Source of the DNA: Branchiostoma floridae
Lineage: Eukaryota > Chordata > Leptocardii > Amphioxiformes > Branchiostomatidae
Length of the DNA: 64,000 bases
Assembly (NCBI RefSeq): GCF_000003815.2
Contig: NC_049991.1
Coordinates: forward strand, 20,966,238-21,030,237
Reading direction: 5' to 3'
The first letter of the stretch is position 1. The number at the start of each line of letters is the position of its first letter. Shown here piece after piece: positions 9,012 through 45,405 of the stretch. Made by a program: the position numbers and the translations under genes. The notes beneath the pieces were generated by a model. That model made no database searches, had not been told where the DNA came from, and saw only the letters and a program-made list of their open reading frames with translations.

Positions 9012-9273
9012 ATGTCTACCGAGGATGTCTACTCCAACTTCTCGGGGCTACCCTCGTGTCGCCCCGAAGGGATGCCCGCCAACGTGACGGTGGAGGCGGA
9101 GGAGTCCGGGGACTCGGGCGTCATTCCCAGCACGTTCATCGCGGTGTTCTTCACGCTGATCTGCCTAATGGGGGTGGTGGGGAACGCGCTGTGCTTCTAC
9201 GTGCTGTGCCTCAAGTCATCGCCGAGGTCCACCATCACCGTCTACATCCTAAGCCTCGCTACTGCAGACACAG
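9012..9273 (+). CDS. GPCR coding exon 1: N-terminus, TM1, first intracellular loop, start of TM2
   Basis: The exon encodes residues 1-87 plus one base of codon 88. The ATG at 9012 is chosen because the frame then runs straight into a typical short extracellular N-terminus with two N-glycosylation sequons (NFS at residue 9, NVT at residue 24) and TM1 from about residue 38, ending in the GN signature at 57-58. The second-loop arginine/serine stretch and LATAD (D86) follow. The donor is CAG|GTAAGG at 9273/9274. The exon joins in phase 1 to exon 2, completing a valine codon. Its last 88 bases are duplicated just downstream (9339-9426), and its donor region is repeated about 17 times to ~10120. 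Confidence 0.9.
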
Positions 9274-12200
9274 GTAAGGCCCCAGGCTTTAATAAATTAT
9301 TAGTCTCGATACGGCAGACACAGGTTAGGCCCCTGACAGCGCTGTGCTTCTACGTGCTGTGCCTCAAGTCATCGCCGAGGTCCACCATCACGGTCTACAT
9401 CCTCAGCCTCGCTACTGCAGACACAGGTAAGGCTCGCTGTGATACATCATTAGCCTCGCTACTGCAGACACAGGTACGGCCCCTGGCTTTAATACACCAT
9501 TAGCCTCGCTACGGCAGACACGGGTAAGGCTCACTCTAGTACATCCTCAGCCTCGCTACTGCAGACACAGGCAAGGCTCGCTCTAGTACATCCTTAGTCT
9601 CGCTACTGCAGACACAGGCAAGGCTCGCTCTAGTACATCCTTAGCCTCGCTACTGCAGACACAGGTAAGGCTCGCTCTAGTACATCCTTAGCCTCGCTAC
9701 TGCAGACACAGGAAGGCCCCAAAATTAGTACATCCTTAGGCTCACTACTGCAGACACAGGTAAGGCTCGCTCTAGTACATCCTTAGCCTCGCTACTGCAG
9801 ACACAGGAAGGCCCCAAAATTAGTACATCCTTAGGCTCGCTACTGCAGACACAGGTAAGGCCCCAATATAAGTACATCCTTAGCCTCGCTACTGCAGACA
9901 CAGGTAAGGCCCCAAAATCGGTACATCCTTAGCCTCGCTACTGCAGACACAGGTAAGGCCCCGAAATTGGTACATCCTTGGCCTCGGTAGGCCAAACACA
10001 GGTACTTAGGCTAACTACTGCAGACATAGGCTCCTCGCTTTGATACATCCTTAGCCTCGCTACGGCAGACACAAGTAAGGCTCCTCATCTTGATACATCC
10101 TTACTAGCCTCGCTACAAAACACACATGTGAGGGTCAATTTCATGTTGCAAATTCTGGAATATAGTAAGCCAAGAACAATATATGGCAAAACAAAGTTGG
10201 TGGGTCAGTTAATTAGGCAGGAGGGCCATAAACTGATTTACGGTCATTGAGCAGGTACGAGGTGGGGTTTTTCTAAAATCGTCATAATACTGAAGCATAT
10301 GCTGTTATTGCCATGAAAAGTGAATAACACATGTGTATGTGAAAGGACAAGCGTAGAGCGACGTATTTTTGTCATAGGAAAAGATGTTTGAATTTTTACG
10401 GGAAAATGTACAAAGAAATACGATACTAAGACCCGTTTAACATTACGCTGGGGTTAGACTCAGCGAGACTCACGGCAATGACCTTCACAGACAAGGAAAA
10501 GTAATGACTATGCGAATCGCAATTCCGCTGCACGGGGGACCTGAGAAATTCTAACTGAAAGCACTTTAGACTGTTCAGCTAGCAGAGTCTTGGGGGCATT
10601 GGGCTAAATGGAACTAGCTGTCGATGTGAATGGTAGTAAAGAACCGGAGTTGCGTCAAGAGGGATTGGCACATGACTTGGAAACGAAAAGCTCCTCAAGC
10701 TGGCTTTCAGAAGAGACATGTTCCAAAGTGTGGCCAAGGTCATTGAGGTGTCCTTAAATGAACCGATTGGTCATATAGATGATAATGATGGGGTCTTCGC
10801 GGCTTGTGGGAGATGTGGAAATACGACGTTGAAAGAAAAGCAATTAGAAGTGGTTTGCAGATGGGGATTTAGATTGTCGGCAAGGCGGAATAGAAATTGG
10901 TCATTTAGATGGTGAATAAGGAACAGAGACATTTCGCGTTTGCAGTGCCCTCCGCGAGAGATTAGATCGCTCAGAAGGTGTTTATTTCAAGACCAGGGCG
11001 GAAGAAGTTAGACGTGTATGTATTGACTTGTTCAGCCAGCTCATTCTAGTGGCACTGCAGAAGATGGATAGATGTCACTTGAAATGTCCGGAAGTAAATC
11101 TCCTAATTTCATCCAGCTGCAGATATTGAATTGCCATTCAATATTCTTTACCTAGATGTCAAACCATCGATGAAAACCACCGATGAAAAGCCGTGGATTT
11201 GATACAAGGTAGAAACAGCGCAGTTCCAGTGGTCTTCATCCATCCATACCAATCGGGTGTTCTCAATGTGTCAGAGTATTTATAACATTAGTTTTTTTTA
11301 AACATTAGTCAATGGCTTAAACTGTTGTTTTTATTTGAGACTCTAATTATTTTAATTGCAGGCGCTAATTATTGCATCACCCTATATTAGAACACGCGAT
11401 GGAGATAAAGACAGTGCAGAACCAGTGGTAGTTATCTAGTCTCTACCAGACGGCCTACGCTGGCCGTTATATGGAAAATAATTTGCCAGGGGAGTTTCGG
11501 CTGTTAGAAGAGTTAACCGGACTCCAGAAAGGGAAACACGAATCTTTAGAAGCGTGGACTGACTCCCCTGGCCTATTTTTTTGTGCCGAATTCTACGATC
11601 CCCGCATCCCCGTAGGAGGGCCTTGGTGGAGACTAGTAGTTAACCACGGAGGACCCTGTGTCCATTTGTCTGGCTGTGATGAGGATCAGTAGTCAGACGT
11701 TAATGAGTCTCTGTATAGCCTCCTTCACCGGCGTCTCTAGGGCCTTGGCGAAAGTTGTCAATTCGCGATTTTTATCTGGGAATACGACGCGCCAACAAAA
11801 ACTTTTGCCAAGGCCCTAGAGACGCCGGTGAAGGAGGCTATCTCTGAAGAAGTCGATGGAGGGATAAACAGTGGGTCTGCAATAGGCTAACAGGGCACAT
11901 AATATCACTCGTCTGTCAGATGATATGTCTCCGTGGATCTTATTCCGTGGATCGGTGGGTTGGAGTTCAATCGTGGGGTCGGCTTAGCTCGGACATCTTG
12001 TATGGGATTGTATTCATCTGTACTTTGGGTCATACTAACTAGATTGTGGCGCCAGATGCCGGTTCACATTTGTTTTGAAAAGTTTTACTTTGTACTATTT
12101 CTATAACTTACCCTCATGTTGGATTCGCACATAAAAGTACTGCGTGGTGAAGATAGATGGAAGACTGTGCAGGTAGTGAGCACGGATGCTGCCGAACCTT

Positions 12201-15200
12201 CCAGTTTTAATTAGTCCGCGATGTGAGCGGCTTCCGAGATGAGACCTTAATGAGTCTTTAGGGGGACATTCGGCAACAATCAAAGATTCCAGTGACGTGG
12301 ATGCACCAGTGTAGGTAGAGGGTTATATAAATTGTTTTCCTATCTCCTTTTCGAATTTATTATTTTATACAGCAAACGAAATTGGCAATCCAAGTATTCT
12401 GACACTGTTACAAATGGCCCGACCTGGTTTAAGGATAATGGCAAAATATTTCATTACGCTCCAGAATTTTGAACTCTTGAATTTTGATATTTCTAACTTG
12501 TGAAACCCAGAAGAATCCGAATTGCAACATAGTACTAAAAGTATTCGCATTATTAGGGTATTTTTTATATTTAACTTGAGCCTTCGAAAATAGGTGAATG
12601 TAATTGTTACTTCAATATACACCATGACGTCACTGTTCTACGCATTGACGCAAGTCATGATCTAGCAGTTGTTTTGGCACTGCAGTTGTTTTCATGTTAG
12701 TTAATATCTGTTAATTGTTTTCTTTTGCTTTTTCCTGTTTACATTCTTGCTTCATCGTTCTACGCGTTGACGTCTTTTATTTTCGTCATTAATTCGGGAA
12801 CTGTAATTTGTCGTATGCAAAAACCTGCTAAATGCTTCTTTCATGTTTACGGAAGGGAATACATTGTTTTTCTTACTCCCATACTTCTCCTTCTAGTAGC
12901 CAAAACTAGTATATCCTCTTTTTTACCATTATACTTATCACCGTTCATTGTCATATTTAACGTTACCTTTCTTATGTTTCTACAATGTGCTTGCAATTAT
13001 CCTCCGGGCATGAACCTGCAAATAAACTTTCATTAATGATTTCAGTTTACATACTGGCCTCGCCCTTCTACGCGTCCACGTACTTCACGAACCTAGCGTT
13101 TCAGTTGAAAACTGCAGTTGTTTGTATGTTAGAAACTTTCTATTTTTTCTATGTTTTTCAGTTTACATCCTGGCCTCGCCCTTCTACGCGTCCACGTACT
13201 TTACGAACCTGTGGTACTTCGGTGACGTCGGCTGCCGCCTCATCGCCGCCGTGGACGTCCTGACGCTGAACGCCGCCACCTTCACGCTCACCGTCATGTG
13301 TCTTGAGCGCTACCTGGCCGTCGTCGACCCCATCAAGTCTTTGAAGTGCCGCTCCGTCTCGCTGTCACGTGTGCTGTCAGGTGTGATCTGGGTGCTGGCG
13401 CTAGGACTGTCCCTTCCCATGGCGCTGTCTACGGAACTCCAGGAGGTAAGGGCTAAAGTTTAAAGTCACGTGATTAAGTGTTCCGCCATGTTGTTAAAGG
13501 GTTATGACGTGTTCGGTCAGGGGTCATCAGACTGCTGGCAAGGGGACTGTCCCTCCCCACGGCGCTGTCTACTGAAATTCAGGAGGTAAGGGCTCTGTCT
13601 ATAGTTTGCACTCACGTGGCTTTGCTTTCAGCCATGTTGCACGATTAAAAAGATATGTCGTGGTCAGTCAGAGGTTATCAGAGTGCTGACGCTAGGACTG
13701 CCCGTTCCCATAGCCCTCTCCACTGAAGTTTGGGATGTAATCATAAGGGCTTAATCTATAGCTTGCAGTCACGTGATTTCAGCTTTCCGCCATGTTGGAT
13801 GGTTAAGGGGTAAGACGTGTCCGGTAAGGGGTATCAAAGTGCTTTCGCTGGGACTGCCCCGTCCCATGACGTCTAATGAACTTTAGGATACAAAGGTTCT
13901 GTCTAAATTTTGGGTGATTTAGTTGATTAGAGGAAATGAAGTACTTTATAGTTTGCAGTTGCGTGACTGACATTCCCCCCATGTTGAGTGGTTAAAGTCA
14001 TGTGCCAGGTTTTATAGCTTATTGCTCATTGTGTTATAAATCCTTAGTTCAATTGTTCCTTCTCCATTGTGTTATAGATTATCTGTTTAGACTTCACTGC
14101 GTTATTGTTTGTTTGTAGTCAATTCGTCAGTGTTATAGTTTATTCATTTATTGTTCATTGTTCATCGTCTTACAGTATATTCGTTAATCGCCAATTGTTC
14201 TAGTGTTTGTTTGTAATTTATCATAGTATATATTTATACTTCATTTTCTTATTGCTTGTTAGTTTGTAGTATATATGTCATTGTGTCATGGTTTATTTGT
14301 TTATAGTTCTTTGTATTATACCGTCAAAATAAGAAACTACAACTCACTAACCTTCCAGTGGCTGCTGTGAACTTTCACGGCGGGTCATCCTCTTTGAATG
14401 TCGAAACAATCCGTTATCGGTTGCAAACACGTAGCGATGTTTAAGCCTTCACCATTATGATATTGTGTGGTAGCCAAGTTTTAAGATTTTGCCCAGGATT
14501 TCAATCCTCTGATTTCTTTTGTATACAGCGCTATAGCGCTAAAAGCGATACTTATGGAGTTTAGAGTTAAAATAACCAGATATTACCGGTACTGTGGCTA
14601 TGAACCTTCTCGGCACCAGGGCATCTCATCTGAACTTCTGGTCTGCTCGGCTGAGTATGTCTGAAACGACAAAAGTACAAGACATTACTTCTGCATCGCG
14701 CCGACCCGGAAATCTGCTCGTTTGAACCAGATTGGCTCCACAGGGGCAAGATTAGTAGCACTAAGCCTGACCGGAGCACGGCGAGTTTGGACGTTCTGCC
14801 AAGAAGGGCCAAACCGCATTACTTCTTCTCTATTGGCACTTCCAAAGCTGCAACACAATCATCAAAGGGCAACCCCAACCAGTGAGCATTCCACAAGAAC
14901 CGTCTCAGACATGTGGTCTTTCTTCAAGGAGCACTGGAGAAGGGCGAAGGGTCTTAAGGCGTCGTTGGTTTCCTTTCAAGTTGTGTAATGAACCGTTCCA
15001 TATCCTGATGTGATTTTACGCCGTGTTATTGTTCATGAGACGAGGCAGTGCAGGGTTATTGGAGTTGGTTAGATCAGGGTTAGTGAGTCGGACAATATGT
15101 TGTAGTTTAACGTTTGCCGAAGTTCCAGTTTAATGAGTTGGAAATTGTGATTTCGTTCGTTTCAATAAGACCACTTTGAGAAAACACAGGGGACAAAGTT

Positions 15201-18200
15201 AGAGCCAAGTAATAAAGCTACGAGTGGACAGCATCTAGTATATACTGACTACAGAGTAGAAGGAAGCTTTTTAAATGTTATCAAAAGGAGCTAATTATGC
15301 AGTAAGCAAACTCGTGAAAAGTCAGCAAAAAAAAAAAAATTGGCATTTGTTACCTGTGGCGGTGACTGTTTTGACGTATGTCATTGAAAGTTAGAGAATT
15401 TGTGTTTCCGCCAACAGAAAGTTATTGGATTGGTTTTAAATGTGAAATGAAGATGAGATAACTTTGATTCAAGTTTGAAAAAAAAATTAAACCGCAAATA
15501 TACAACTACACTTGCCAAAATTTCCGATTTACATGTACAGCAGTTACTTAACTTCTGTGTCAAAACTTAAATACATATGATCCTTCTTTGACGTCACTGG
15601 TAGCTTACCGAAACAGTTGGCAAATCAATTTTTTGGTCTCTCTTTTCTTCCAAGGTTCAGCGGTCACTAATGCGGCCACCCCATCCTGCCAGCTCTTCCA
15701 TCTAGTGCCTGACTTCTTAGCAAATCAATTTTAACAGTTGACGAGCTTGACCTGACGGTTGAAATAAGACTTCGTTGTAACTTCCTGCAAGTCAGATAAG
15801 CTTTCAAGTTCAGATCTTAAGTTTATAAAAAAAAGAGAGAGTCCTAAATTGTGGCACTCCTAAAGATCGCGCATGTCTCAGATTGCATCTTGCCCTTTCA
15901 ATGTACGGTCTTGATTTACCCCAAATGTCCCTGTGGCGGCTATGCCGTGCCTTTAAACGAACCACAGCACATTGTACCGTCCCAGGTCTTGGCCCGGGAA
16001 GCAGGGTTAGCGGTAACCGCAGCCTGTTACGTACTTCCATCCATTGCCTGTTTTCTGGTTCCCTCACATCTTAGCGAATCAACTTTGACGGATGTCGAGT
16101 TGGACCTGAAGGTTGAAATACGACTTTGTTCAACAAGACACTGTCAGATAGGCTTTCAAGATAAGATCCAAAGTTTGTGATAAAAAGTGTCTTAAATTGT
16201 GGCAACTTCAAGTCACTTGCATGTCTCGAGTTGCAGCTTGGCCTTTCAATCTACCGTCTTGATTTACCCCAAATGTCCCTGCGGTGGATATGCCGTATTT
16301 ATAAACGAACCACAGCACATTGTACCATCTCAGGTCAGGGACCGGGAAGCAGGGTTGGCGATAACGGCAGCCTGTTACGTACTTCCATCCATTGCCTGTT
16401 TTCTGGTTCCCTCACATCTTAGCGAATCAATTTTGACCCATGTCGAGTTGGACCTGAAGGTTGAAATACGACTTTGGTACAACTTCCAGCAAGACGGATA
16501 ATCTTACAAGATAAGATCCAAAGTTTGTGAAAAAAAGAGTCTTAAATTGTGGCAACTTCTAGTCACTTGCTTGTCTCGAGTTGCATCTTGCCCTTTCAAT
16601 CTACGGTCTTGATTTACCACAAATGTCCCTTGCGCGGTTATGCCGTGCCTATAAACGAACCGCAGCACATTGTACCGTCTCAGGTCAGGGCCCGGGAAGC
16701 GAGGTGAGCGGTAACGGCGCGTGCAGGCTGTTAAGGACTGGTGAAAAGGGATGATGATGGTTCGCACCTTTGCACTTGGGACGGTTTTAATGGCAAGCGA
16801 GATCGCACAAAGGTCGTGCCTATTCTTCGCGGTGTCGGGCGGTGAAAAACGCTTCATCACTGAGCGAGTTTGGGAAATACCGGAACGGTTAGAAGCGCTG
16901 CTTTGCTGAGCCATGTCATTGTTTACGTCATTGATTACGTCACTCAGGCTTGTGCAAATGTCAGGTTAGACTGCATGGTCCTAGATGAAGCAATGCACAA
17001 ATCATTGGGATTATGAGAAATAAATTGTTCTGTATGTCATAGAATTGAGCTACCGGGATTTTTGACTGAATCGTGCGTTTATATCAATCTTGAAAAGAAA
17101 CAAGAAGAAATTCCAATTTGGGCTTTCGGGATATGAGGCTACTTAGTAACAAATTTGCAAAAGTTTTGCAAATTTTCAAATTTGCATCTAAATCAATGGA
17201 AGAAAGTTAGATAAAACCCAAAACTTAAGCTTCTTTCGATGAAAGTTCGACATCCAAGTTTGCATCAACTGTGTCTTGGCTTCGTTTCCCATTGAAATCC
17301 CAAATTGTCTTCAGCTTGACTTTGTCTTACCTTTGTTTTCTATTGGAATCCAAATTGTTTTCAAGCCTGAATTTGTTTTACAATGTTTCCTATTGTCTTC
17401 ATTTCTTCCAGATCACTTAAGTGTCACTGACGAAAACTATTGGATGCTAGTTGAAACGTCTGAGCTTTCCAAAAATCATATCCAGTTGCTTGACTAACTG
17501 CTTTTTGGCACAAGACTTCTGCTTTATTGTATTACGTTTTCCGTCTGGAACGTAATGTCTTATTCAGGAAGATCACCGAGTATTATTGTGAAAATAGATG
17601 TTTAATACAACACACGCCTCCTGCATTAATATATTTTGCCTTCTGGGGTGGGGTGGGGGACTCAACGTCTTATTTAGGAAAATCACTGCATATTGTTCTG
17701 AAAATGGGATGTTACGACTACTTATGACTTCTGCATTAATATATTACGCCATTTCAGGAGTGCGTGTTATTATCATATATATCACGCGTGTTATTCCGGA
17801 ATTGTGAAGCGACCGTTGGTATTAAGCAGGTACAGTTTACATCAGAAGTGCAGGAGAGTGATCATCCCTTGCTTGCTCAGAAACATAATTCTGGAAAATC
17901 ACTGCGTATTATTGTGACAATGGGATGTTTAACAAAACATACTCTTCTGCATTCATGCATTACGCCCCCTCAGAAGGGAACTCAGTGTCTTATTCCTGAA
18001 AATCACGCGCGTTATTCTGCAATTGTGAAGCGGCCGATGGTGTTCAGCACGTAACATCAGAGATGTTGAAGAGTGATCATCCCTTGCTTAGTCAGAAATG
18101 GCCCCGAGAGAGAGTAAATGCGGCCGTAACATGAAACGCAACATTAACCTTCAGCTATTACAGACTAGGCATCCTTTACTCGCATGGCAGATGGCGTGTA

Positions 18201-21200: not shown

Positions 21201-24200
21201 CATAACTGCAGCTGAATGATAAACGATAAATAAGACATCGCTGAATCATCTCAACTAGAGACAACCGTCGAGGCGTGGCGGCATGGCGCTTTTATTAAAG
21301 TCTTGTTACGGCCGTGAACTTTAGATGGCGAGGCCAGAGGTGGCTGCAGGCCCATAATTGGTTTCTATCGATTTATATCAAATTCAAGTTGCTGTAATAT
21401 AACGGGTAGAATATATCAGAGGACACACTTTTTTAACGAGTTTGCTCAGTGCAAGGATATTGACCACTTCTAGACACTGAACTACGCTTACTGTGGCAGC
21501 ATCTCTTCTCTCTAAGTCAGAAACATCGATCGCGAGCTTCTGCAAGCTTTAATAAGTATCTAGAGAATTTGAATTAAGTTATGCTGTGAAGGTTTATGAA
21601 AGGTACAAACGTGTAAACATCTAGTGGTCAGAGGCAAGCTTGAGAATATTACAACGTTAACATTGTTTCAGTAAAGTTTGCTAAACCCATCTTTATGAAG
21701 ATCCTAATGATTTATCCTAAGACTTATTGTACCTCTACCACAATTGGCATGGCCGACGTGCACAAAATGACAAGCCCAAATTCTGCTGTCCAGATACTCA
21801 ACACGCCCGGGGAAAAAGTCTAAGTATCGGAAACATTTAATGAACGTTTGCAAATAGTTTCATCAGGTTGGCACGTCCCTGAATAAAGAGACTCTTTTAC
21901 ACAACCACTGCTTAATAGTTAATATGTAAATCAAGCTTTTGCCAAACACATGCTTTTTGCCTACCACACCATGACATCATCGCGATCGCTCGTATTTCCA
22001 CCGACGTCTCGGTGACCGTCTGTCACTTTCCTCAGGACAATTAACACTGGTTCACATCGTATAACAGCAATACGTGTCACTACTTACAGATGAATGTTGC
22101 TCCGAAGTTATATTTTTCGGTACGAACTAATAGATACTGGCAACTTTTTCAAAGTTCTCAGATCAAAGACAGGCCTACGAATGTGGCTTACGTGGCAGAA
22201 ATGCCAGAATTCTTCATATTAGAATAGCACTGAGTGTAAATTAGGGTTTTACCATGATGCAGACTGACCGATGGCGGTCATACATTAATCCTGACTACTG
22301 CCGAGCCAAATGCGCAACTGTCTTATTAGAACCCCTCCATCTAGCCTTAGCATCTTACAATTCTTATCCTTACAACCTTTACTAATATTCTTTCCAGAAC
22401 AGTCCCATCCCTTATATTATATTATAACAGCAATAGCCAAACTTTGTAATACGTATAGTGATTTTACCAGTATATATATATCTTTTTTCATACGGCTAGT
22501 CCTATAATAGAATTAGCAATTAATAGAATTATATAATACAAGATAAAAAGTCAGTCACGTAAATCGTTTGTGAGGAGATTCATGTACCTGGTTGATAGAG
22601 TTAAATAAACCGTTCCATTACATAGATTACTTACAGGATTTCCTACGACCTAACGGACGCACAACTTCCGTCTCTCCCCCTATCTTTATGTGCAAGACCC
22701 CGCAGTCGCATTACGTGGCCTATTCAGTAGACATAGTTTCTCTAGCTCGATAACTGAAAGCTCTAGGGGCAATTTCTCTCAAAGCCGACCCAATGACCTA
22801 GTCGTAGACCCTTCCAATGATGTTACTCCATTGTGAAGCAAACCGTGTATACCCGTGATACAGACAGGGGATGCTACTGTACAGTTGTGGTTACAATCAG
22901 GAGGTATACCGGAGGAGTCACCGCTTACGGCAAGTACACCTAACGGTGACCCAATGGCCCAGTCATCGATCCTCCCAATTCTGTAAATCGTAAAGCCTAA
23001 CCGTACACACCCACGATACAGACAAGGATGTCCCTGGTGCTGAAAATACAGCCCCCCCCCCCCCTCCCCCATGCTGTTACTCCATCGTATAGCCTAACCT
23101 TACAAACTCATGGCACAGACATCGTCATGCCCTTGGTGCTGAACTAGGAATTGTGGTTAGAATCAAACGGAGGAGTCACCACTTACGGCAATTTCAATAA
23201 ACGGCGACCCTTTGGCCTAGTCATGGTTCTTCCCAATGATGTTACTACATCGTTAAGCCTAATCGTATAAAGGCATGCATGGCACGGAAATGTGTATGCA
23301 TTTGGTTCTGAATTGACAATTGTGGTTAGAGTCAAGAGGTCAAACGAAGAAGTCACCGCTTACGGTGATATCATGCAACGGCAATTCAAAGGCCCAGACA
23401 TATACCCTCCCAATAATGTTACTACAACGTAAAGCCTAGTCGCACACAACCATGGCACATACATGGTCATGCCCTTGGTGCTAAACAGACAGTTGTAGTT
23501 AGAATCAGTCGGTCTAACGAAGGCGTCACCGCTTACGGCAAATACACCAAAGTCGACCCAATGGCCCAGTCACAGATCTTCCCAATGCTGTTACTACAAC
23601 GTAAAGCCTAACTGTACAAACCCATGCATGGCACAGAAGTGGGTATGCCCTTAGAGCTGAACTGACAACTGCGGTTAGAATCAGGAGGTCTAACGAAGGA
23701 GTCACGACTCACAGCAATTTTACCCAAAGACGACCCAATGGCCTAGTCACACTTAGATATCGCCCCAATTCTATTACTTAATCGAAAAGCCTATATGCCT
23801 AATCGACAAACCCATGCATGGCACAGAAATGGGCATGCCCTTAGTGCCGAACAGACAGTTGTGGTTAGAACCAGGAGGTCTAACGAAGGAGTCACTGCTT
23901 ACGGCAAAAACGGTGACCCAATAGCCTAGTCATAGATCCTCCAAATGCTGTTACTTCATCGAATAGCCTAACCATACACACCCATGCATGGCACAGAAGT
24001 GGGTATGCCCTTAGAGCTGAACTGACAACTGCGGTTAGAATCAGGAGGTCTAACGAAGGAGTCACCACTTACGGCAATTTCATCCAACGGCGACCCAATG
24101 GCCCAGTCATCGATCCTCCCAATGATGTAACTACATCTTAAAGCCTAACCGTACAGCCTAACCATACAAACTCGTGGCACAGACATGGAAATGCCCTTGG

Positions 24201-27200
24201 TGCTAAACTGACAATTGGTTTTACAGCCAGGAGGTCAAGCGAAGGAGTCACCGCTTACGGCAAACGGTGACTCAATAGCCCAGTCACAGATCTTCCCAAT
24301 GCTGTTACTACATCGCAAAGCCTAGCCATACAAACTCATACATGGCACAGAAATGGGTCCGGGTATGCCATTGGTTCTGAACTGAAGATTGTAGTAAGAA
24401 TTAGGAGGTCAAGCGATAGAGTCTCCGCTTACGGAAAGTACACCAAACGGTGACCCAATGGCCCATTCATAGATCCCCCCAATGCTATTACTACATCGCA
24501 AAGCCTAACCGTACAAACTCGTGGTACAGACATGGTCATGCCCTTGGTGCTAAACAGAGAGTTGTTGTTACAGTCAGGTCAAACGAAGGAGTTACCACTT
24601 ACGGCAACTTCACGGCAACCCAATGGCCTAGTCATAGATCCTCCCAATTCTGTTACTACATCTTAAAGCCTAATCGTATAAAGGCATACATGGCACGGAA
24701 ATGTGTATGCATTTGGTTCTGAATTGACAATTGTGGTTAGAGTCAAGAGGTCAAACGAAGAAGTCACCGCTTAAGGTGATATCATGCAACGGCAATTCAA
24801 AGGCCCAGACATATACCCTCCCAATGATGTTACTACAACGTAAAGCCTAACCGTACAAACTCATGGCACAGACATGTCCCTGCTACTTAACAGACAGTTG
24901 TGGTTAGAACCAAGAGGTCTAACGAAGGAGTCACCGCTTACGGCAGAAACGGTGACCCAATGGTCTAGTCATAAATCCTCGCAATGCTGTTACTAGTGTT
25001 AGTACATCGTAACGCCTAACCATGTATACCCATGATACAGATATGGTCATACCCTTGGTGTTGTACAGACAGCTTTGGTTACAATCAGGAAGTCCAACGA
25101 AGGCATCACCACTTATGGTAATTTCACCCAACGATGACCCATTTATAGATCCTCCCAATGCTGTTACTACATCGTGAGGCCTAACTGTACAAACTCATGA
25201 CACAGACACGGTCATGCCCTTGATACTAAACAGACTGTTGTTGTTTGAGTCAGGAGGTCACCGCTTACGGCAATTTCACCCAAAGTCGACCCAATAGCCT
25301 AGTCCTAGACCCTCCCAATGCTGTTTCTACGTTGTAAAGCCTAACTGTACAAACTCATGCATGACACAGACATGGTCATGCCCTTGGTGCTAAACGGACA
25401 GTTGTGATTAGTATCAGGAGGTTAAACGAAGGCGTCACCGCTTACGGAAATTTCACCAAGCAGCGACTCAATAGCCCAGTCACAGATCCTTCCGATGCTG
25501 TTACTACGTAGTAAAGCCTAACCGTACAGCCCAACCGTACAATATGACATGGGCAAACATGTCCTTAGTTCTGAATTGTCAATTGTTGCTACAGTAAGGA
25601 GGTCAAGCGAAGGAGACACCGCTTACGGGTATGCTTACACTTGAAAAACGGATTACTGGAATTATGTCAGAGTTTCCCCAAAGAGCAAAGAGACCAATTT
25701 GCGTCAGCAGCGCCATTAAACTAATCCCAACAAATAGCCCCCACCCTGAGTCGCCAGCTGAGAGCAGGGCCTTTATCCTCCTGTGATTGGTCTGGTAACC
25801 ATCAGACGAGCTGCAGGGATTCTATAGTCAAAGCTCAGCAGCGATAGATATACACGATGTCCAACTGGGCGAAGGTCGTGCTAAAAATGCACCGGCGTAA
25901 AGTTTGGGAGATTTATGGATTCTTCTCCGTCGCACACAAAGTTTCATCCGATACGCTTGTCTTATTGTTTGGTTGAGTTAAGAAGAGAAACCGATGACAT
26001 GATGCTCTCCATTATAACTGGGTCATTTTTTTCTGTATTTAAGAACATTATTTGAGACAGGAAGAATATTACTAAAAATGGTGTTGAATATTACATTATG
26101 CTTTAATACAAAAAGGCGACGCGTCGAATATGTATATATTTGCTAATCCCAACAAATAGCCTCTACCCGGAGTCGCCAGCTGCGAGTAGGGCTATTATCC
26201 CGGCAGTGATTGGTCTGGTAACCATCAGACGAGCTGCAGGGATTCTATCTTTATAGCTCAGCAGCGATAAATATACACAATTTCCAACTGGGTGAAGGTC
26301 GTGCTAAAAATGCACCGGCGTTTAGTTTGGGAGGCATATATATGGAGTCTGTCCACAAAGTTTCATCTGATAAGTTTGGCTTGTTCTTTGATGTTGTTTG
26401 CGGAGTTAAGAATAGGAACCGATGACATATGCTCTCCATGAATACTGGGTCATTTTGTTCTGTATCTAAGTCATACATATTCGTCAAATATAAACTAAGG
26501 TTTAGTACAAAAAGGCTACGCGGCGAATATATATGACTATAGAGATATTTGGCAATACGGGTATCTTGTTAGCTCAGCAACAATACACATGCACACTGCC
26601 CAACTGGGTAAGAGTCATGCTTGAAATGCGCCCCTGTTGAGTTTGGGACATATATGCAGTCTCTCCATTGCACACAAAGTTTTATATGATAACTTTGGCT
26701 TGTTTTTTTGGTGGTGTTTTTGTGTAAAGAAGAGGAACCGATCAGTGCAAAAAGTGCAAAAATGCCAAATCTACATGACTATATAGACAATTCAGAGATC
26801 TTGTTAGTTCAGCAGCAATAAAAAGACTGTCCAACTTGGTAGCAGTTATGTTAGAAATGCACTGGCGTTGAATTTGGGTAGTCTCTACCAGACTCCGGAT
26901 CGCTGGAAAAATCGTAGAAATGGAAAAAATAGAGGAGTAAGCCGGCCAGAGGAATATAACCGGCCAGGGAACAGCACGCGATCCACGGATTATATTCCTC
27001 TCTATTTGTTCCATTTCTACGATTTTCCAGCGATCCGGAGTCTGGTAGAGACTAGAATTTGGGACTGGTATAGCTTCTCCATCCCACACAAAGTTTCGTC
27101 CGATACGTCTGGCTTGTTCTTTGATGATCTTTGTTTACTACAGCGTTTGTTGAGTTTTGTACTCTGTGTAATAGTTGTTACCATATATTGTAACATGTAC

Positions 27201-29967
27201 AGCTGTCGTGCAATAGAGTTCTGTGTATGTTACATTGTGGAGAGGACGTAGAATTGCAGGACCTATACCGTTATTTTGTGCTAAGTGTTGCCCTACATTG
27301 TACCATGTACAATAAAGTTCTGTGTATGTTACAGTGTGGGGAGGATGGTATAGTGCAGCAGTCGGGGTGCTTTGCCGTCTGGAGTGAACAGGAGACGAAA
27401 ATCTACTTCACAACTCTCTTCATCGTCGCTTTCGTCATCCCGGGGGTCGTGCTCTGCGCATTCTATCTGCGCATGCTCTGTAAGTACTGGCTGCCGGCCG
27501 GCCGGCCCATCGGGGAGGTGACGTCACGAGCAACCGAGTCCAGGAAAAAGGTAAACAAAAACAAAGTACTTGCTTTCCTGGGAAACTGTGTGCTCGTTGC
27601 TGTTCAATGATCTGATACGAAAGTAATAGAGGCTTCATCTAGAATATGCTGATGGTTGTGCTATCGGGTTACTTGAAACCAACTAGACACTGTCAAACCC
27701 AGAACCGAACGCTACAATAAAGTGCGATTCCATATATGACATGCCTGCTGAACAAAAAGAATGGAAATTAATGTTAACAATGCGACTGTATGTTATCTAT
27801 TTTATATATGTAATGTTCTTTTGATGATTTTATTGTAGTTGTAGCGCAGTGGTGCTGTACAGCAAGGCCGTAATTCAACCTCCGTTTGCCAGTGTCTTGT
27901 TTTTATTTTGAATAAACCATTTGATTGATTGGTTGATTGATTGAAATGTCTCGGTAGTAGAAATGCACAGTCTTTGACAATGTTCTGTATCTTTCTAAGT
28001 TTTTTTATCCTGTCGGTGCTCCATATTTCACTGATGGTCAGGGTGATTTCCATGATGATGGACAGATGTTTGTCGTTCTGTTTTGCTGTAACGTGTTCAG
28101 TACTGTACTGCATTTCTTCTGTACCGTTCTGCGAGATGGTATTCCTGACACTGGTGGTGATCTGACCATGACGTATAACATTCTATAACAAGTTCTGTAC
28201 CGTTCTGTATGTATTACGCACCGTTTTATATGTGTTCTGTACGGGTCTCACTAAATACCGACAACAAACCGACAACAACCGAAAACTACCGAAAACAACC
28301 GAAAAGAACTTTCACTAAATACCGAAAATAACCGAAAACAACTTTCACTCATTACCGAAAACAACCGAAAACAACTTTCACTAATTACCGAAAACAACCG
28401 AAAACAACTTGAAACCGTTGCACAGGTTGCCAAAGCCCCTGATCCTAGTAGTGTTCTGGCTGTGCTACCTGCCGTTCTGTACCAAGTTCTGTACCGTTCT
28501 ACATGTTTTTTTTACCGTTCTATATGTGCTATGTGCCGTTCTCTAGGTAGCCAAGATGGTGTCCCTGATCTTGGTGGTGTTCTGGCTGTGCTACCTGCCG
28601 TTCTGTACCAAGTTCTGTACCGTTCTATATGTGTTCTGTACCGTTCTACATGTGTTCTGTACTGTTCTGTAGGTAGCTAAGATAGTGTGCCTGATCCTGG
28701 TGGTGTTCTGGCTGTGCTACCTGCCGTTCTGTACCAAGTTCTGTACCGTTCTATATGTGTCCTGTACCGTTCTACATGTGTTCTGTACTGTTCTGTAGGT
28801 AGCCAAGATGGTGTCCCTGATCCTGGTGGTGTTATGGCTGTTGTACCTGCCGTTCTGCACCATGTTCTATACCGTTCTGCATGTGTTCTGTACCGTTCTA
28901 CATGTGTTCTGTACTGTTCTGTAGGTAGCTAAGATGGTGTCCCTGATCCTGGTGGTGTTCTGGCTGTGCTACCTGCCGTTCTGTACCAAGTTCTATACCG
29001 TTCTGCATGTGTTCTGTACTGTTCTACATGTGTTCTGTACCGTTCTGTAGGTAGCCAAGATGGTGTCCCTGATCCTGGTGGTGTTCTGGCTGTGCTACCT
29101 GCCGTTCTGGATCCTGCAGATGCTGATGTTTCATAGTCCCGAGACCATCCGCAGCGGCATCAGCTCCGAGGCTTTCTACTACCTCAGGTCGGTACGACGG
29201 TATAATGATGGAACATCTTTTGTTTTATCATTGTGTCGGCCGACTATATATATATACTCTCTGTTCGCAGCCAGCGCACTGAGCTTACAATGGGTGGGGC
29301 TAAATCGCAAGAGTCTGGAGCGACTGCCATTCGGGACTAACTCAGTTCATGTTTTTTTGAAAATTAAGATTTAACATGTTTTTGAACATATTATGTAGTT
29401 TTTATTATCTTCAGTTGTAGCTTAGTAAAGCAATGGCGCATCAGACATAGGTCAATATAGAACGTCATAGAACTCCGGGCTGTGATGGAATCTTGCACCG
29501 ACAAAAATCCTAGATTGCATTTTTCGTGTGAAGACAGGTGGTCTTCGCATCACACAACACATGCACAACCATCTTCCGAGTGCCCTCACTTTGCGAACGT
29601 ACGCCGTTCATTCATTCATTCGTTCGGTCATTTTTCCAGGTTCGTCCTGCAGAACCTCAGCTACATCAACGCATGCGCCAACCCGTTCTTGTACACGTTG
29701 CTAAGCGACAAGTACAAGGCCATCCTGAAGGGCATCCTGACCTTGGGGGGCACGCCGCAGTTTCCCGCCGTGCACCGCACCATGACCACTCACAGCTCCA
29801 TCGAGCTCAACTCCATGCGTAGGAGTCACGTGATGGACAGGGGCAGTCACGTGACGACCCACACCCCCTCGCCCATGTTCGGGACGCCCCACGTGCGCCG
29901 GACCTTCTACACCATCCGCGAGCGGTCAAGTTCGGAGGAGAACGACGCCATGAACATTCGCGCCTGA
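9012..29967 (+). CDS. UTS2R-like: Urotensin-2 receptor-like rhodopsin-class GPCR, five coding exons joined across 21 kb
   Basis: The join 9012-9273, 13162-13445, 27335-27550, 29051-29187, 29640-29967 gives one open frame of about 408 residues (399-400 with the alternative exon 3 acceptors), ending in TGA at 29965. Every junction is in phase (1, 0, 0, 2). Seven membrane segments appear in order, with GN in TM1, LATAD in TM2, WYFGDVGC before TM3, an aspartate in TM3 at the amine/peptide-contact position, ERY at the TM3 end, FWLCYLPFW in TM6 and NPFLY in TM7. The stretches FGDVGCR, FTLTVM, ERY and CANPFLYTLL match what I know of vertebrate urotensin II receptors better than somatostatin receptors, so I call it UTS2R-like; a somatostatin/galanin-type label is the alternative. 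The role would be a plasma-membrane peptide receptor coupled to G proteins. The vertebrate gene is, to my knowledge, intronless in its coding region, so this five-exon form is notable. Confidence 0.88.
9261..10120 (+). repeat. Minisatellite of ~47 bp carrying copies of the exon 1 splice donor
   Basis: About 17 units follow the real exon end. Each holds GCCTCGCTACTGCAGACACA then a donor-like GGTAAGGC and a short spacer ending TACATCCTTA. Most units keep CAG|GTAAGG; some have CAG|GCAAGG (at ~9565 and ~9614) or have lost a base (CAGGAAGG, ~9708 and ~9803). Degeneration increases beyond ~9980. The array starts inside coding sequence, so the exon is the apparent parent copy. Confidence 0.92.
9339..9426 (+). 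repeat. In-frame 88-bp duplicate of the end of GPCR exon 1
   Basis: Bases 9186-9273 (TM1 end, loop 1 and TM2 start) recur here 153 bp downstream, ending in an intact donor at 9426/9427. Only two differences are seen, ACC/ACG and CTA/CTC, both synonymous. The 153-bp spacing is 51 codons and the frame from 9012 stays open throughout, so use of this second donor would insert 51 residues without a frameshift. Confidence 0.85.
10121..11430. other. Intron 1 sequence without recognised elements
   Basis: A decayed retroelement fragment with TGTCACTTGAAATGTCCGGA lies at ~11055-11105. No exon candidates fit between TM2 and TM3. Confidence 0.4.
11437..11635. mobile_element. Mutator-like MITE, 9-bp target duplication with one mismatch
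   Basis: It starts TAGTCTCTACCAGACGG and ends GGTGGAGACTA. Flanks are GTAGTTATC (11428-11436) and GTAGTTAAC (11636-11644). Internal blocks (TTTGCCAGGGGAGTTT, GTGCCGAATTCT) recur at ~58449-58575 and 58868-59078. Confidence 0.82.
11716..11840. mobile_element. Fold-back element with 40-bp arms
   Basis: TAGCCTCCTTCACCGGCGTC (11716 on) and its complement ending at 11840 form 40-bp arms with one mismatch and a 45-base loop. TAGCCTCC resembles the tips of the neighbouring Mutator-like family, so this may be another member. Confidence 0.88.
11841..12609. other. Intron 1 sequence without recognised elements
   Basis: No exon, array or terminal repeat was identified. Confidence 0.35.
12610..13161 (+). 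repeat. Duplicated acceptor and 5' part of GPCR exon 2
   Basis: A near-perfect copy begins at 13046 (after ATTTCAG) and covers ~48 bases of exon 2 before diverging; it is offset 116 bp from the real exon start. A decayed copy lies at ~12727-12780 (acceptor AG lost) and a weaker one at ~12612-12650. The linking sequence with ACTGCAGTTGTTT is also shared between units. Confidence 0.85.
13162..13445 (+). CDS. GPCR coding exon 2: end of TM2 through TM4
   Basis: After the acceptor TTTTTCAG (AG at 13160-13161) the exon continues the frame as V-Y-I-L-A-S-P-F-Y, reaching residue 182. It carries the extracellular loop 1 tryptophan (W105), FGDVGC with the disulfide cysteine C112, D119 in TM3, FTLTVM, the ERY motif at 136-138, the second intracellular loop and TM4 (W164, P173). 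The donor CAGGAG|GTAAGG lies at 13445/13446 in phase 0. The TM3 block is the strongest match to urotensin II receptors. Both ends of this exon are tandemly duplicated into the flanking introns. Confidence 0.92.
13388..14005 (+). repeat. Four tandem units of ~145 bp spanning the exon 2 donor
   Basis: Units begin near 13388 (the real exon end), ~13530, ~13680 and ~13836. Each contains CTAGGACTG..CCC, a CTGAA or GGAACT stretch, then the intron start and CGCCATGTTG. Unit 2 keeps a perfect CAGGAG|GTAAGGG donor near 13587; units 3 and 4 have lost it. Confidence 0.85.
14010..15650. other. Intron 2 sequence without recognised elements
   Basis: An A/T-rich stretch at 14010-14330 has loose TTCATTGT/TTTATTGT repeats. 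A poly(A) run of 12 lies at ~15328. I see no exon or mobile element. Confidence 0.4.
15654..16735 (+). repeat. Tandem satellite, ~350-bp unit, about three copies, in GPCR intron 2
   Basis: Units start near 15839, 16187 and 16543, with a partial copy upstream from ~15654. Shared blocks include TTACCCCAAATGTCCCTG, ATAAACGAACC, CAGCACATTGTACC and CATCCATTGCCTGTTTTCTG. Open frames over these units (~110 codons) recur only because the sequence repeats and are not treated as genes. Confidence 0.85.
17405..17530 (+). repeat. Retroelement end with a CTGANGA-hairpin-GAAAC core
   Basis: CTGACGA (17427-17433), a 5-bp stem AACTA/TAGTT around TGGATG, and GAAAC (17453-17457) are followed by the family sequence CATATCCAGTTGCTTGA. 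The same family recurs at 20925-21010, 31680-31800, 38540-38660 and 46305-46562. Its copy pattern resembles ends of Penelope-like elements, but no reverse transcriptase is visible. Confidence 0.6.
17535..18095 (+). repeat. Degenerate tandem array in intron 2
   Basis: Repeated blocks such as GTCTTATT(C/T)AGGAA, ATCACTGCGTATTATTGTGA, TTCTGCATTAATATATT and GAGTGATCATCCCTTGCTT occur in ~115- and ~235-bp periods. There are two to four copies depending on the block. Confidence 0.65.
18100..18885. other. Intron 2 sequence with nothing recognised
   Basis: A moderately A/T-rich stretch. I see no coding frame with a recognisable domain, no terminal repeats and no tandem structure. Confidence 0.35.
18889..19165 (-). 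repeat. Dispersed repeat (family shared with 29255-29345 and 40755-41110)
   Basis: The reverse complement contains GTCTGGAGCGAGCTGCCATT and a downstream block on CCCGGTGT/CACACTT also seen at 40945-41110. The + strand TTCCATGGCCGCACCTGGGG is a further shared block. It is probably a SINE or short transposon. Confidence 0.6.
19405..20705 (+). repeat. Tandem array, ~240-bp unit, five copies plus a partial
   Basis: AATGCTGACGCA recurs at 19530, 19778, 20018, 20261 and 20501. Each unit contains GAGGAGATAGAAATGATGG and TTTACGCTTCTGTCAGAA. Units alternate between two subtypes that differ by a small deletion after AATTCCGGCTT. Because 240 is a multiple of three, similar ~70-codon frames recur, but the deletion shifts the frame, so this is not treated as coding. 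Confidence 0.9.
20925..21010 (-). repeat. Minus-strand copy of the CTGANGA-hairpin-GAAAC element
   Basis: On the minus strand: CTGACGA (20995-20989), stem AGATAG/CTATCT around TGGATG, then GAAAC (20969-20965). Compared with the copy at 46343-46386 the outer stem pair changes from G-C to A-T on both sides. Confidence 0.6.
21010..22640. other. Intron 2 sequence without recognised elements
   Basis: I see no exon with splice signals, no terminal repeats and no arrays, only scattered A/T-rich tracts near 22380-22540. Confidence 0.35.
22740..25640 (+). repeat. Satellite of ~175-bp unit, about 16-17 copies, in GPCR intron 2
   Basis: The block GTCACCGCTTACGG or a variant recurs at about 22917, 23172, 23352, 23527, 23700, 23890, 24060, 24247, 24420, 24590, 24763, 24929, 25106, 25257, 25434 and 25614. 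Each unit also has TGACCCAATGGCC, CCTCCCAATGCTGTTACTAC and AAGCCTAACCGTAC. A unit at ~23260-23430 is nearly identical to one at ~24660-24830, and another pair (~23625 and ~23980) shares its variants, so higher-order copying has occurred. A C-tract lies at ~23050-23062. Confidence 0.92.
25690..27125 (+). repeat. Tandem array of four ~300-450-bp units, the last interrupted by a MITE
   Basis: Units start near 25700, 26148, ~26560 (partial) and ~26800 (partial). Shared blocks include GCTCAGCAGCGATA, CCAACTGGG, AAAATGCACCGGCG, AGTTTGGGA and CACAAAGTTTCATC. In the fourth unit the AGTTTGGG block is split by the element at 26879-27054. Confidence 0.85.
26879..27054. mobile_element. Fold-back MITE with 9-bp target-site duplication (Mutator-like)
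   Basis: The element starts TAGTCTCTACCAGACTCCGG and ends with the inverted complement; the arms are ~58 bp with few mismatches. It is flanked by perfect GAATTTGGG copies (26870-26878 and 27055-27063). Three neighbouring tandem units show the uninterrupted site (for example GAGTTTGGG at ~26641), proving insertion. A 9-bp duplication fits the Mutator superfamily. No transposase is present. Confidence 0.9.
27170..27360 (+). repeat. Two-copy duplication spanning the exon 3 acceptor
   Basis: The blocks TTGTAACATGTAC..AATA.AGTTCTGTGTATGTTACA and ATTGTACCATGTACAATAAAGTTCTG lie ~98 bp apart. The upstream copy reads TTACATTG where the real acceptor reads TTACAGTG, so its AG is lost. Confidence 0.75.
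27335..27550 (+). CDS. GPCR coding exon 3: extracellular loop 2, TM5, third intracellular loop
   Basis: The frame reads SGC-FAVW, the loop 2 cysteine that should pair with C112, then a membrane segment (IYFTTLFIVAFVIPGVVL) with the TM5 proline and tyrosine, and a basic loop ending SRKK at the donor AAG|GTAAAC (27550/27551, phase 0). Three acceptors preserve the frame: TTACAG (exon from 27335), GCAG (27359) and CAGCAG (27362). I prefer the first because it has the better upstream context, but only the C-terminal 61 codons are certain. The preceding ~95 bp, including the acceptor, are duplicated upstream at about 27170-27260, where the AG has become AT. Confidence 0.82.
27835..27945 (+). repeat. 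3' end of a retroelement with (TTGA)n tail in intron 3
   Basis: GTAATTCAACCTCCGTTTGCC, TTTGAATAAACCATT and a (TTGA)n tail form a typical non-LTR or SINE 3' end. A related end lies, in reverse, at ~55470-55560. Confidence 0.55.
28250..28420 (+). repeat. Minisatellite of ACCGAAAACA-type units with TTTCACTAA spacers
   Basis: Units of about 10-11 bp (CCGAAAACAA) occur in groups separated by CTTTCACTAA(A/T)TACC. The frames it creates on the minus strand are repeat artefacts. Confidence 0.85.
28426..29107 (+). repeat. 126-bp array of exon 4 acceptor plus TM6 start, six units
   Basis: Units start at 28426, 28547, 28673, 28799, 28925 and 29051, the last being the functional exon. Spacings are 121, 126, 126, 126 and 126 bp. 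Each unit has the first 57 bases of exon 4 followed by intron-like 21-bp sub-repeats (TTCTGTACCGTTCTACATGTG type) ending in TTCTGTAG, an intact acceptor. In the exon frame a unit is exactly 42 codons, the last being TAG, whose AG is the splice acceptor. The first unit is the most diverged. Confidence 0.95.
29051..29187 (+). CDS. GPCR coding exon 4: TM6 and extracellular loop 3
   Basis: The acceptor TTCTGTAG ends at 29050. The exon begins VAKMVSLILVVFWLCYLPFW, the TM6 signature of the family, and continues through loop 3 to YYLR. The donor ACCTCAG|GTCGGT lies at 29187/29188 and leaves two bases (phase 2). A competing donor four bases on (after 29191) would put the next exon out of phase, so it is rejected. 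The first 57 bases of the exon, with the acceptor, are repeated five more times upstream at 126-bp spacing. Confidence 0.9.
29255..29345 (+). repeat. Dispersed repeat fragment in intron 4
   Basis: GAGCTTACAATGGGTGGGGC followed by TAAATCGCAAGAGTCTGGAG matches 40768-40795 joined to 40949-40970, that is, without the MITE found there. It therefore serves as a related empty site. Confidence 0.7.
29640..29967 (+). CDS. GPCR coding exon 5: TM7, helix 8 and cytoplasmic tail
   Basis: The acceptor TTTTTCCAG ends at 29639 after a (TTCA)n-rich pyrimidine tract. The first base completes the split arginine codon. TM7 contains NLSYINACANPFLYTLL, with the NPxxY-type motif, followed by a basic helix 8 (SDKYKAILKGIL). 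The tail is about 85 residues, rich in Ser, Thr, His and Arg, with no cysteine for palmitoylation, and ends SSSEENDAMNIRA before TGA. No AATAAA was found close downstream; the next sequence is a 21-bp minisatellite. Confidence 0.93.
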
Positions 29968-44826: not shown

Positions 44827-45405
44827 ACCAGCTGCTGCCGCGCCCCATGCCTGCAAATCTGGTGTGTTATGCCGAAGGGCAGTTATATCGGCTATATAGA
44901 GACAGATACAGAAGCTGGTGTGTTGCACCGAAGGGCAGTTATATCGGCTATATAGAGACAGATGCAGAAGCTGGTGTGTTATGCCAAAGGGCGGTTATAC
45001 CGGCTATATAGATACAGATACAGAAGCTGGTGTGTTACGTCGAAGGGCGGCTATATAGAGACAGATAAGTGTGTTACACCGAAGTGCGGTTATACCAGCT
45101 GTATAGATACAGATACAGAAGCTGGTGTGTTACGCAGAAGTGCGGTTATACCATCTGTATAGATACAGATACAGAAGCTGGTGTGTTACGTCGAAGGGCG
45201 GCTAAATAGAGACAGTTCCAGTTGTTAGTGTGTTACCCCGAAGGGCGGTTTTCCCACCTGTATAGATCCAGATCCAGAAGCTGGTGTGTTACCCCGAAGG
45301 GCGGTTATAGCGGCTTTGCAGATACAGTTCCAGAAGCTGGTGTGTTCCCCCGAAGGGGGGTTATCCCGGCTTTACGGATCCAGATCCAGAAGGGGGTGTG
45401 TTAGG
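44827..45405 (+). repeat. LINE-tail minisatellite, ~56-bp unit, about ten copies
   Basis: Units of GAAGCTGGTGTGTTACGCCG, AAGGGCGGTTATACC and TATAGATACAGATACAGA continue the 3' tail of the adjoining LINE end. The array finishes in a C tract and an A tract (45412-45440). The single-unit form is at 39880-39940; a reversed expanded form is at 63285-63885. Confidence 0.88.

What the first reader, a model, noticed from the sequence alone, without database searches (positions are those of the whole stretch)
9186..29107. Five of eight coding splice junctions of one receptor gene are amplified into tandem decoy arrays
Seen directly: the exon 1 donor, exon 2 acceptor, exon 2 donor, exon 3 acceptor and exon 4 acceptor are each tandemly copied. 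The unit always includes both exon and intron bases. Donor copies spread downstream and acceptor copies upstream, so the copies always sit in the intron, and similarity falls with distance from the exon. Unit sizes differ (47, ~116-125, ~145, ~98, 126 bp), so these are separate events with a common rule. I recall junction-spanning 'mirage' minisatellites being described in amphioxus, so the class may be known; the density in a single gene is what stands out. Inference: either a replication or repair process targets junctions, or selection removes copies landing in the coding side.
Basis: partly seen in the sequence, partly recalled or inferred. Interest (0 to 1): 0.9.

Follow-up and report, generated by a model that had tools for sequence, protein, structure and literature searches.

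The report
Copied splice junctions in lancelet receptor
A lancelet-like genome's hormone-receptor gene carries tandem copies of four of its eight splice junctions, a dense example of the already described lancelet 'mirage' repeats, best read as ordinary local duplications that selection tolerates only on the intron side.

Summary
The arrays are real. The gene is a five-exon class A peptide receptor (urotensin-II/somatostatin-receptor-like). Four of its eight coding splice junctions are spanned by local tandem copies: exon 1 donor, exon 2 acceptor, exon 2 donor, exon 4 acceptor. The fifth claimed case, the exon 3 acceptor, is one purely intronic copy ending 3 bp before the exon. The claimed fall of similarity with distance holds for one array and not for the largest.

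Such structures are in print as amphioxus 'mirages' (globin and PGBD5 papers, passages read). A small sample of the same 513 Mb genome found 3 of 115 inferred junctions spanned, against about 0.96 expected from local array density (P = 0.07). In this gene 49% of intron positions are array-covered, so four of eight is the positional background (P = 0.62). A stricter count of duplication events gives P of 0.003-0.03, but the gene was picked after the fact. One sampled gene shows the same pattern at its apparent stop codon, not a splice site. I conclude: minisatellite turnover filtered by selection; junction targeting is unproven.

The parts
9012..9273 (+). coding exon 1 of a class A peptide receptor (into TM2), phase-1 donor
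9186..10136 (+). donor array of exon 1: 88 bp of exon plus intron; a copy at +153 and 47-bp units; 15 copies scored, 11 keep GT, 2 have GC, 2 GA
13040..13210 (+). acceptor array of exon 2: copy at -116 (46 of 48 exon bases identical, intron side at background beyond a few bases); an older degenerate copy near 12679-12779
13162..13445 (+). coding exon 2, phase-0 donor
13367..13912 (+). donor array of exon 2: copies at +140 and +291, and a weak one at +447
27208..27358 (+). one 52-bp purely intronic copy beside the exon 3 acceptor (27208-27259 copies 27307-27358); not junction-spanning
27362..27550 (+). coding exon 3; GCAGCAG acceptor, so the exon may start at 27359
28437..29116 (+). acceptor array of exon 4: 126-bp units, 4 well-kept copies with intact AG, and 21-bp subrepeats; a degenerate older stretch at 28093-28248
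29051..29187 (+). coding exon 4 (TM6), phase-0 acceptor, phase-2 donor; donor not duplicated
29640..29967 (+). coding exon 5 (TM7, tail, stop); acceptor not duplicated

Best explanation
Local tandem duplications (slippage or unequal exchange) arise throughout the array-rich introns of this gene. Some units happen to include an exon edge. Such a duplication is harmless only if the exon-proximal splice site goes on being used, so surviving cases have their copies stacked in the intron: downstream of donors, upstream of acceptors. Copies then expand, diverge and lose their splice signals like any minisatellite. This is the described amphioxus 'mirage' minisatellite, here at four junctions of one gene. 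Shown: anatomy, intron-side rule, intact decoy sites, same structures in other genes of the genome. Inferred: the duplication mechanism, that decoys are not used in vivo, and selection as the filter.
For: Four junctions spanned, copies intronward in 4 of 4. Same anatomy elsewhere: a kinase exon with both junctions copied (L083), an SLC6 exon donor (L085), a weak myosin donor whose copy has lost its GT; intronward in all four. This gene's introns are 49% array-covered (381 of 773 positions) against 15% in the rest of the window (117 of 800) and 3.8% in sampled myosin loci (41 of 1076), so arrays touching junctions are expected here. Exon interiors in the myosin sample: 0 of 224 duplicated. 23 of 26 modelled alternative exon ends give a premature stop, so the outermost sites fit the protein best; its alignment to the human urotensin-II receptor shows no long extra segment at the junctions. 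A local duplicate straddling the apparent stop codon of a paralogous receptor (L047, 60 of 68 bases, copy downstream) suggests the rule follows the coding/noncoding border, not splicing. Prior reports: Adh3, troponin C, globins, PGBD5.
Against: Counting duplication events instead of positions, 4 of 8 exceeds the expected 0.8-1.4 (P 0.003-0.03), and the sample leans the same way (3 against 0.96, P = 0.07). In L085 the exon part of the copy is identical over 80 bp while its intron part aligns with about 17% mismatches and many gaps (10 of 58 aligned bases, score 20.5 against a shuffle maximum of 19.0), which plain neutral decay does not predict if the intron parts are homologous. Leaving out exon 1, exon-part differences between copies and exons are 20 synonymous to 9 non-synonymous, where 23-31% synonymous is expected. 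No RNA data, second individual or second assembly was available.
Confidence: 0.78

Rival explanations
1. A junction-targeted process (splicing- or transcription-coupled breakage, R-loops, repair at exon edges) preferentially duplicates splice junctions.
For: Event-based null: 4 of 8 against 0.8-1.4 expected; sample 3 of 115 against 0.96; the kinase exon L083 has both ends copied.
Against: Gene chosen post hoc; the sample's excess is not significant and 2 of its 3 cases are one exon; position-based background already explains 4 of 8; one case sits at an apparent stop codon; 8 of the 12 arrays found in the gene region span no junction.
Confidence: 0.1
2. The arrays are residues or engines of intron birth: tandem duplication of an exon segment with AG|GT creates new introns, as proposed for amphioxus globins.
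For: Relatives in this genome mostly lack these introns: of 102 non-self matches listed, the match ranges of 81, 70, 67 and 63 run across the positions of introns 1 to 4; the donor 1 and acceptor 2 regions align with 17 of 20 columns identical, one gap.
Against: That donor/acceptor similarity scores 12, at the 99th percentile of random pairs, with 16 pairs looked at, and much of it is a shared VYIL codon run; introns 2 to 4 show no such similarity (scores 7, 6, 8; null median 7). Introns could equally be old and lost in paralogues; closer relatives near C13:21.3 Mb could not be read.
Confidence: 0.06
3. The decoys are functional: arrays of competing splice sites tune splicing or expression, for example by feeding transcripts to nonsense-mediated decay.
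For: Many decoys keep strong sites: 11 of 15 exon 1 donor copies keep GT, six of them scoring as high as the real donor; 4 good exon 4 acceptor copies score 6.2-6.9 against 6.4; 23 of 26 modelled alternative ends give premature stops. Copies differ from the exon with a synonymous bias.
Against: Other decoys have lost GT or AG; no RNA evidence; published globin and Adh3 data are said to suggest no interference with regular splicing. A synonymous bias is partly expected from changes on the constrained exon.
Confidence: 0.04
4. Assembly artefact: tandem arrays manufactured by misassembly.
Against: Copies differ from the real junctions by about 2-35%, which duplicated reads would not produce; the gaps lie outside the gene; resequencing supported the PGBD5 repeats.
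Confidence: 0.02

Closest known systems
Amphioxus 'mirage' minisatellites (Adh3; globins BflGb6 and BflGb9; PMC3087553, passages read incl. part of the abstract; the Adh3 paper itself was not held)
   Different: four junctions of one gene; no expression, length-polymorphism or somatic-instability data here
Lancelet PGBD5 60-bp and 108-bp repeats over splice sites (PMC3902484, passages read)
   Same: two junction-overlapping arrays in one gene, imperfect copies
   Different: fewer junctions; there a predicted exon lies in the repeats
Intron gain by tandem duplication of AG|GT segments (Rogers model, as cited in PMC3087553; potato RdRp paper PMC4974935 seen only in a search listing)
   Same: tandem duplication carrying splice signals inside a gene
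   Different: no donor/acceptor homology was established for these introns

Membership tests
amphioxus mirage minisatellite | tandem repeat whose unit spans an exon-intron border | tested here: met
   4 of 8 junctions; not met at the exon 3 acceptor
amphioxus mirage minisatellite | copies lie in the intron and the outermost site keeps the protein intact | tested here: met
   copies intronward in 4 of 4; CDS open, 399 aa; use of the outermost sites inferred from the protein, no RNA
amphioxus mirage minisatellite | copies keep AG/GT signals in many but not all units | tested here: met
   11 of 15 exon 1 donor copies keep GT; 4 of 5 exon 4 acceptor copies keep AG
amphioxus mirage minisatellite | host is a cephalochordate | tested here: inconclusive
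   unnamed 513 Mb genome; the identification rests on recall of the Branchiostoma floridae assembly size and on the resemblance itself
amphioxus mirage minisatellite | normal splicing despite decoys | not testable with these tools
   no RNA data
amphioxus mirage minisatellite | length instability between alleles or cells | not testable with these tools
   one assembly only
intron gained by tandem duplication | intron ends homologous to neighbouring exon ends | tested here: inconclusive
   intron 1 score 12 (99th percentile), introns 2-4 at background

The most novel reading that the evidence does not exclude
Coding/noncoding borders are real hot spots for the survival or birth of tandem arrays in this genome: the exon half of each unit is kept alike by exon-templated gene conversion while the intron half drifts, so the constrained exon acts as a master copy that keeps regenerating its own decoys. 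Hints: the event-based excess, exon half more alike than intron half in 26 of 29 copies (copies were found by exon similarity, so biased), the synonymous bias, an identical 80-bp exon copy beside a diverged intron copy.
Probability: 0.15. Interest if true: 0.72.

Novelty: new member of a known kind. Interest (0 to 1): 0.4.

Why it matters
In the papers I saw, junction-spanning arrays in lancelets are reported gene by gene. Here one gene has four, and a small sample of the same genome puts the rate near 3 per 100 junctions (3 of 115), so many more may exist if the sample is representative. That makes two questions testable at scale: whether strong decoy splice sites stacked beside real ones are ignored, and by what rule; and whether such arrays seed new introns. 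For this gene the practical message is that gene models may wrongly include decoy exon fragments.

Tried and rejected
Whole-genome scan of repeats against annotated borders: not possible.

Junction targeting: tested by position, by event simulation and in the sample; not established. One search's kinase/GPCR density wrongly included L043, a locus of this very gene; one search repeats it without L043 (0.024 instead of 0.028 per junction). The seven kinase loci used for junctions were chosen by partial match range, but only after one search had shown me L083, so that part is not fully blind. One of the six SLC6 junctions in L084 is doubtful (acceptor score 1.5).

C18 myosin locus L010 was suspected as a donor array but is a pyrimidine-rich minisatellite beyond the exon. 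L066 looks like a TG-rich repeat and L075 like a short repeat near the open frame's end; neither was counted as a junction copy. Pfam searches with loci 0 as a remote detector: SLC6 at E up to 10 showed one duplicated exon pair among 104 matches (read by eye), aldehyde dehydrogenase none among 14; sensitivity is low because short exon pieces rarely score. Intron birth by duplication: tested by donor/acceptor alignment, not supported. Exon-versus-intron identity of copies is biased because copies were found by their exon side, so I use it only as a hint.

None of seven paper searches listed a genome-wide survey of mirages; that is a statement about those searches in an open-licence library only.

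Full report
What is there. The window lies at C13:20966238-21030237 of an unnamed 513 Mb, 431-contig genome. The size matches, from recall, the reference assembly of Branchiostoma floridae. The gene at 9012-29967 has five coding exons and an open 399-residue product. Pfam gives 7tm_1 (E 3e-45). The best-scoring solved structures are the urotensin-II receptor, then somatostatin receptors. No long extra segment appears at the junctions in the alignment to the urotensin-II receptor.

Junction by junction. A 120-bp probe on each of the eight junctions was compared with the whole window, and a stricter spanning test (at least 8 bp either side, searched 1.5 kb both ways) was applied. Exon 1 donor: many copies downstream. 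Exon 2 acceptor: copies upstream. Exon 2 donor: copies downstream. Exon 4 acceptor: four close copies upstream at a 126-bp spacing and a degenerate one. Exon 3 acceptor: one 52-bp copy, wholly intronic, ending 3 bp before exon 3. Exon 3 donor, exon 4 donor, exon 5 acceptor: nothing. The same test on 300 first-order Markov sequences gave no hit. A query holding the exon 1 junction matched only this locus (12 of 12 matches). The same query for the exon 4 unit did not complete.

Decoy quality. With a recalled consensus matrix, the real exon 1 donor scores 11.4 and six of its 15 copies score the same; 11 of 15 keep GT. The four good exon 4 acceptor copies score 6.2-6.9 against 6.4 for the real one; the fifth has lost its site. 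23 of 26 modelled alternative exon ends truncate the protein. The three full-length ones are exon 1 +153, exon 3 -99 and the GCAGCAG alternative of exon 3; the last two are not junction-spanning copies.

Is it special at junctions? Three tests. (1) By position: 381 of 773 intron positions of this gene pass the same spanning test, 117 of 800 in the rest of the window, and 14 of 92 exon-interior positions, the last because arrays reach into exon edges; four of eight junctions is then expected (P = 0.62). This test counts every copy of long arrays and so favours 'ordinary'. (2) By event: 12 arrays were found in the gene region, placed at random as single units on a collapsed gene of about 13.5 kb, units wholly inside or wholly covering an exon barred: mean 0.8 junctions hit, P(>=4) = 0.003; 0.005 with longer units; 0.03 if six older undetected events are added. 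This favours 'special', but the gene was chosen for its look. (3) Sample: myosin exons (30 loci of 142 matches, 58 exons, 101 inferred junctions, 1 spanned), partial-domain kinase exons (7 of 30 loci, 8 junctions, 2 spanned, both on one exon of L083), one SLC6 locus (6 junctions, one of them doubtful, 0 spanned): 3 of 115 against about 0.96 expected (P = 0.07). Of the 101 myosin junctions 48 were inferred from exon pairs and 53 from one side only. I read this as not established either way, with a lean towards a modest excess.

Other examples. L083, a kinase locus fetched without regard to repeats, has two acceptor copies (-152, -299) and two donor copies (+350, +480). L085, an SLC6 gene fetched because the Pfam listing showed two side-by-side matches and therefore left out of the 115, has its exon tail copied 168 bp downstream. 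L047, a paralogous receptor, has 68 bp around its apparent stop codon copied 198 bp downstream, 60 of 68 identical. Of 41 kinase and receptor loci scanned, 4 had an open-frame-to-flank copy (L047, L066, L075, L083); L066 and L075 look like simple repeats.

Mechanism. Tandem duplication of a unit that includes an exon edge leaves the exon-proximal site intact and puts all extra pieces in the intron. Use of an inner site mostly inserts a stop. So the intron-side rule needs no directed process: it follows from keeping the protein. The stop-codon case supports this. What is not settled is why the exon half of copies is often more alike than the intron half (26 of 29 copies, biased search; L085, where homology of the intron halves is only just above shuffles) and why exon-part differences lean synonymous (20 to 9, exon 1 left out, copies not independent). 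Changes on the constrained exon explain part; exon-templated gene conversion is possible.

Comparison. Passages of the amphioxus globin paper (PMC3087553) use the term 'mirage', describe it at 5' and 3' borders in two globin genes, cite Adh3 and other amphioxus loci, say splicing seems undisturbed, and propose intron gain. Passages of the PGBD5 paper (PMC3902484) describe two such arrays in one gene and cite Adh and troponin C. The Adh paper itself is not held. The present gene is a dense new member of that kind.

Against the calls I corrected the count of truncating alternatives to 23 of 26, the donor 1/acceptor 2 alignment to 17 of 20 columns, and added the 14 of 92 exon-interior positions and the limits of the kinase and SLC6 samples.

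Noticed in passing
L083 (C19, kinase exon at locus positions 1500-1897): Both splice junctions of one kinase exon are copied: acceptor copies at -152 and -299, donor copies at +350 and +480.
   Followed up: yes
L085 (C7:213700-214900): An exon of an SLC6-type transporter has its last 80 bp plus the donor copied 168 bp downstream, identical in the exon part while the intron part has diverged.
   Followed up: partly
L047 (C2, receptor paralogue, minus strand, oriented positions 2519-2586 and 2717-2784): Sequence around the apparent stop codon is copied downstream: the same border pattern at a coding/3'-flank border instead of a splice site.
   Followed up: partly
C13:21307085-21356792: Fragments of related receptors (56% and 39% identity to parts of exon 2) lie about 0.3 Mb away; they may be close paralogues with or without the same introns, but their DNA could not be fetched.
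   Followed up: no
window 44859-45403: 56-bp tandem array outside the receptor gene; its sequence seemed familiar as a lancelet minisatellite (recall only).
   Followed up: no
window 28490-29047: The exon 4 array holds 21-bp subrepeats resembling by eye the TM6-coding part of exon 4, so the intronic minisatellite may descend from exon sequence.
   Followed up: no
window 27353-27364: Exon 3 has a GCAGCAG tandem acceptor that could add one glutamine.
   Followed up: partly
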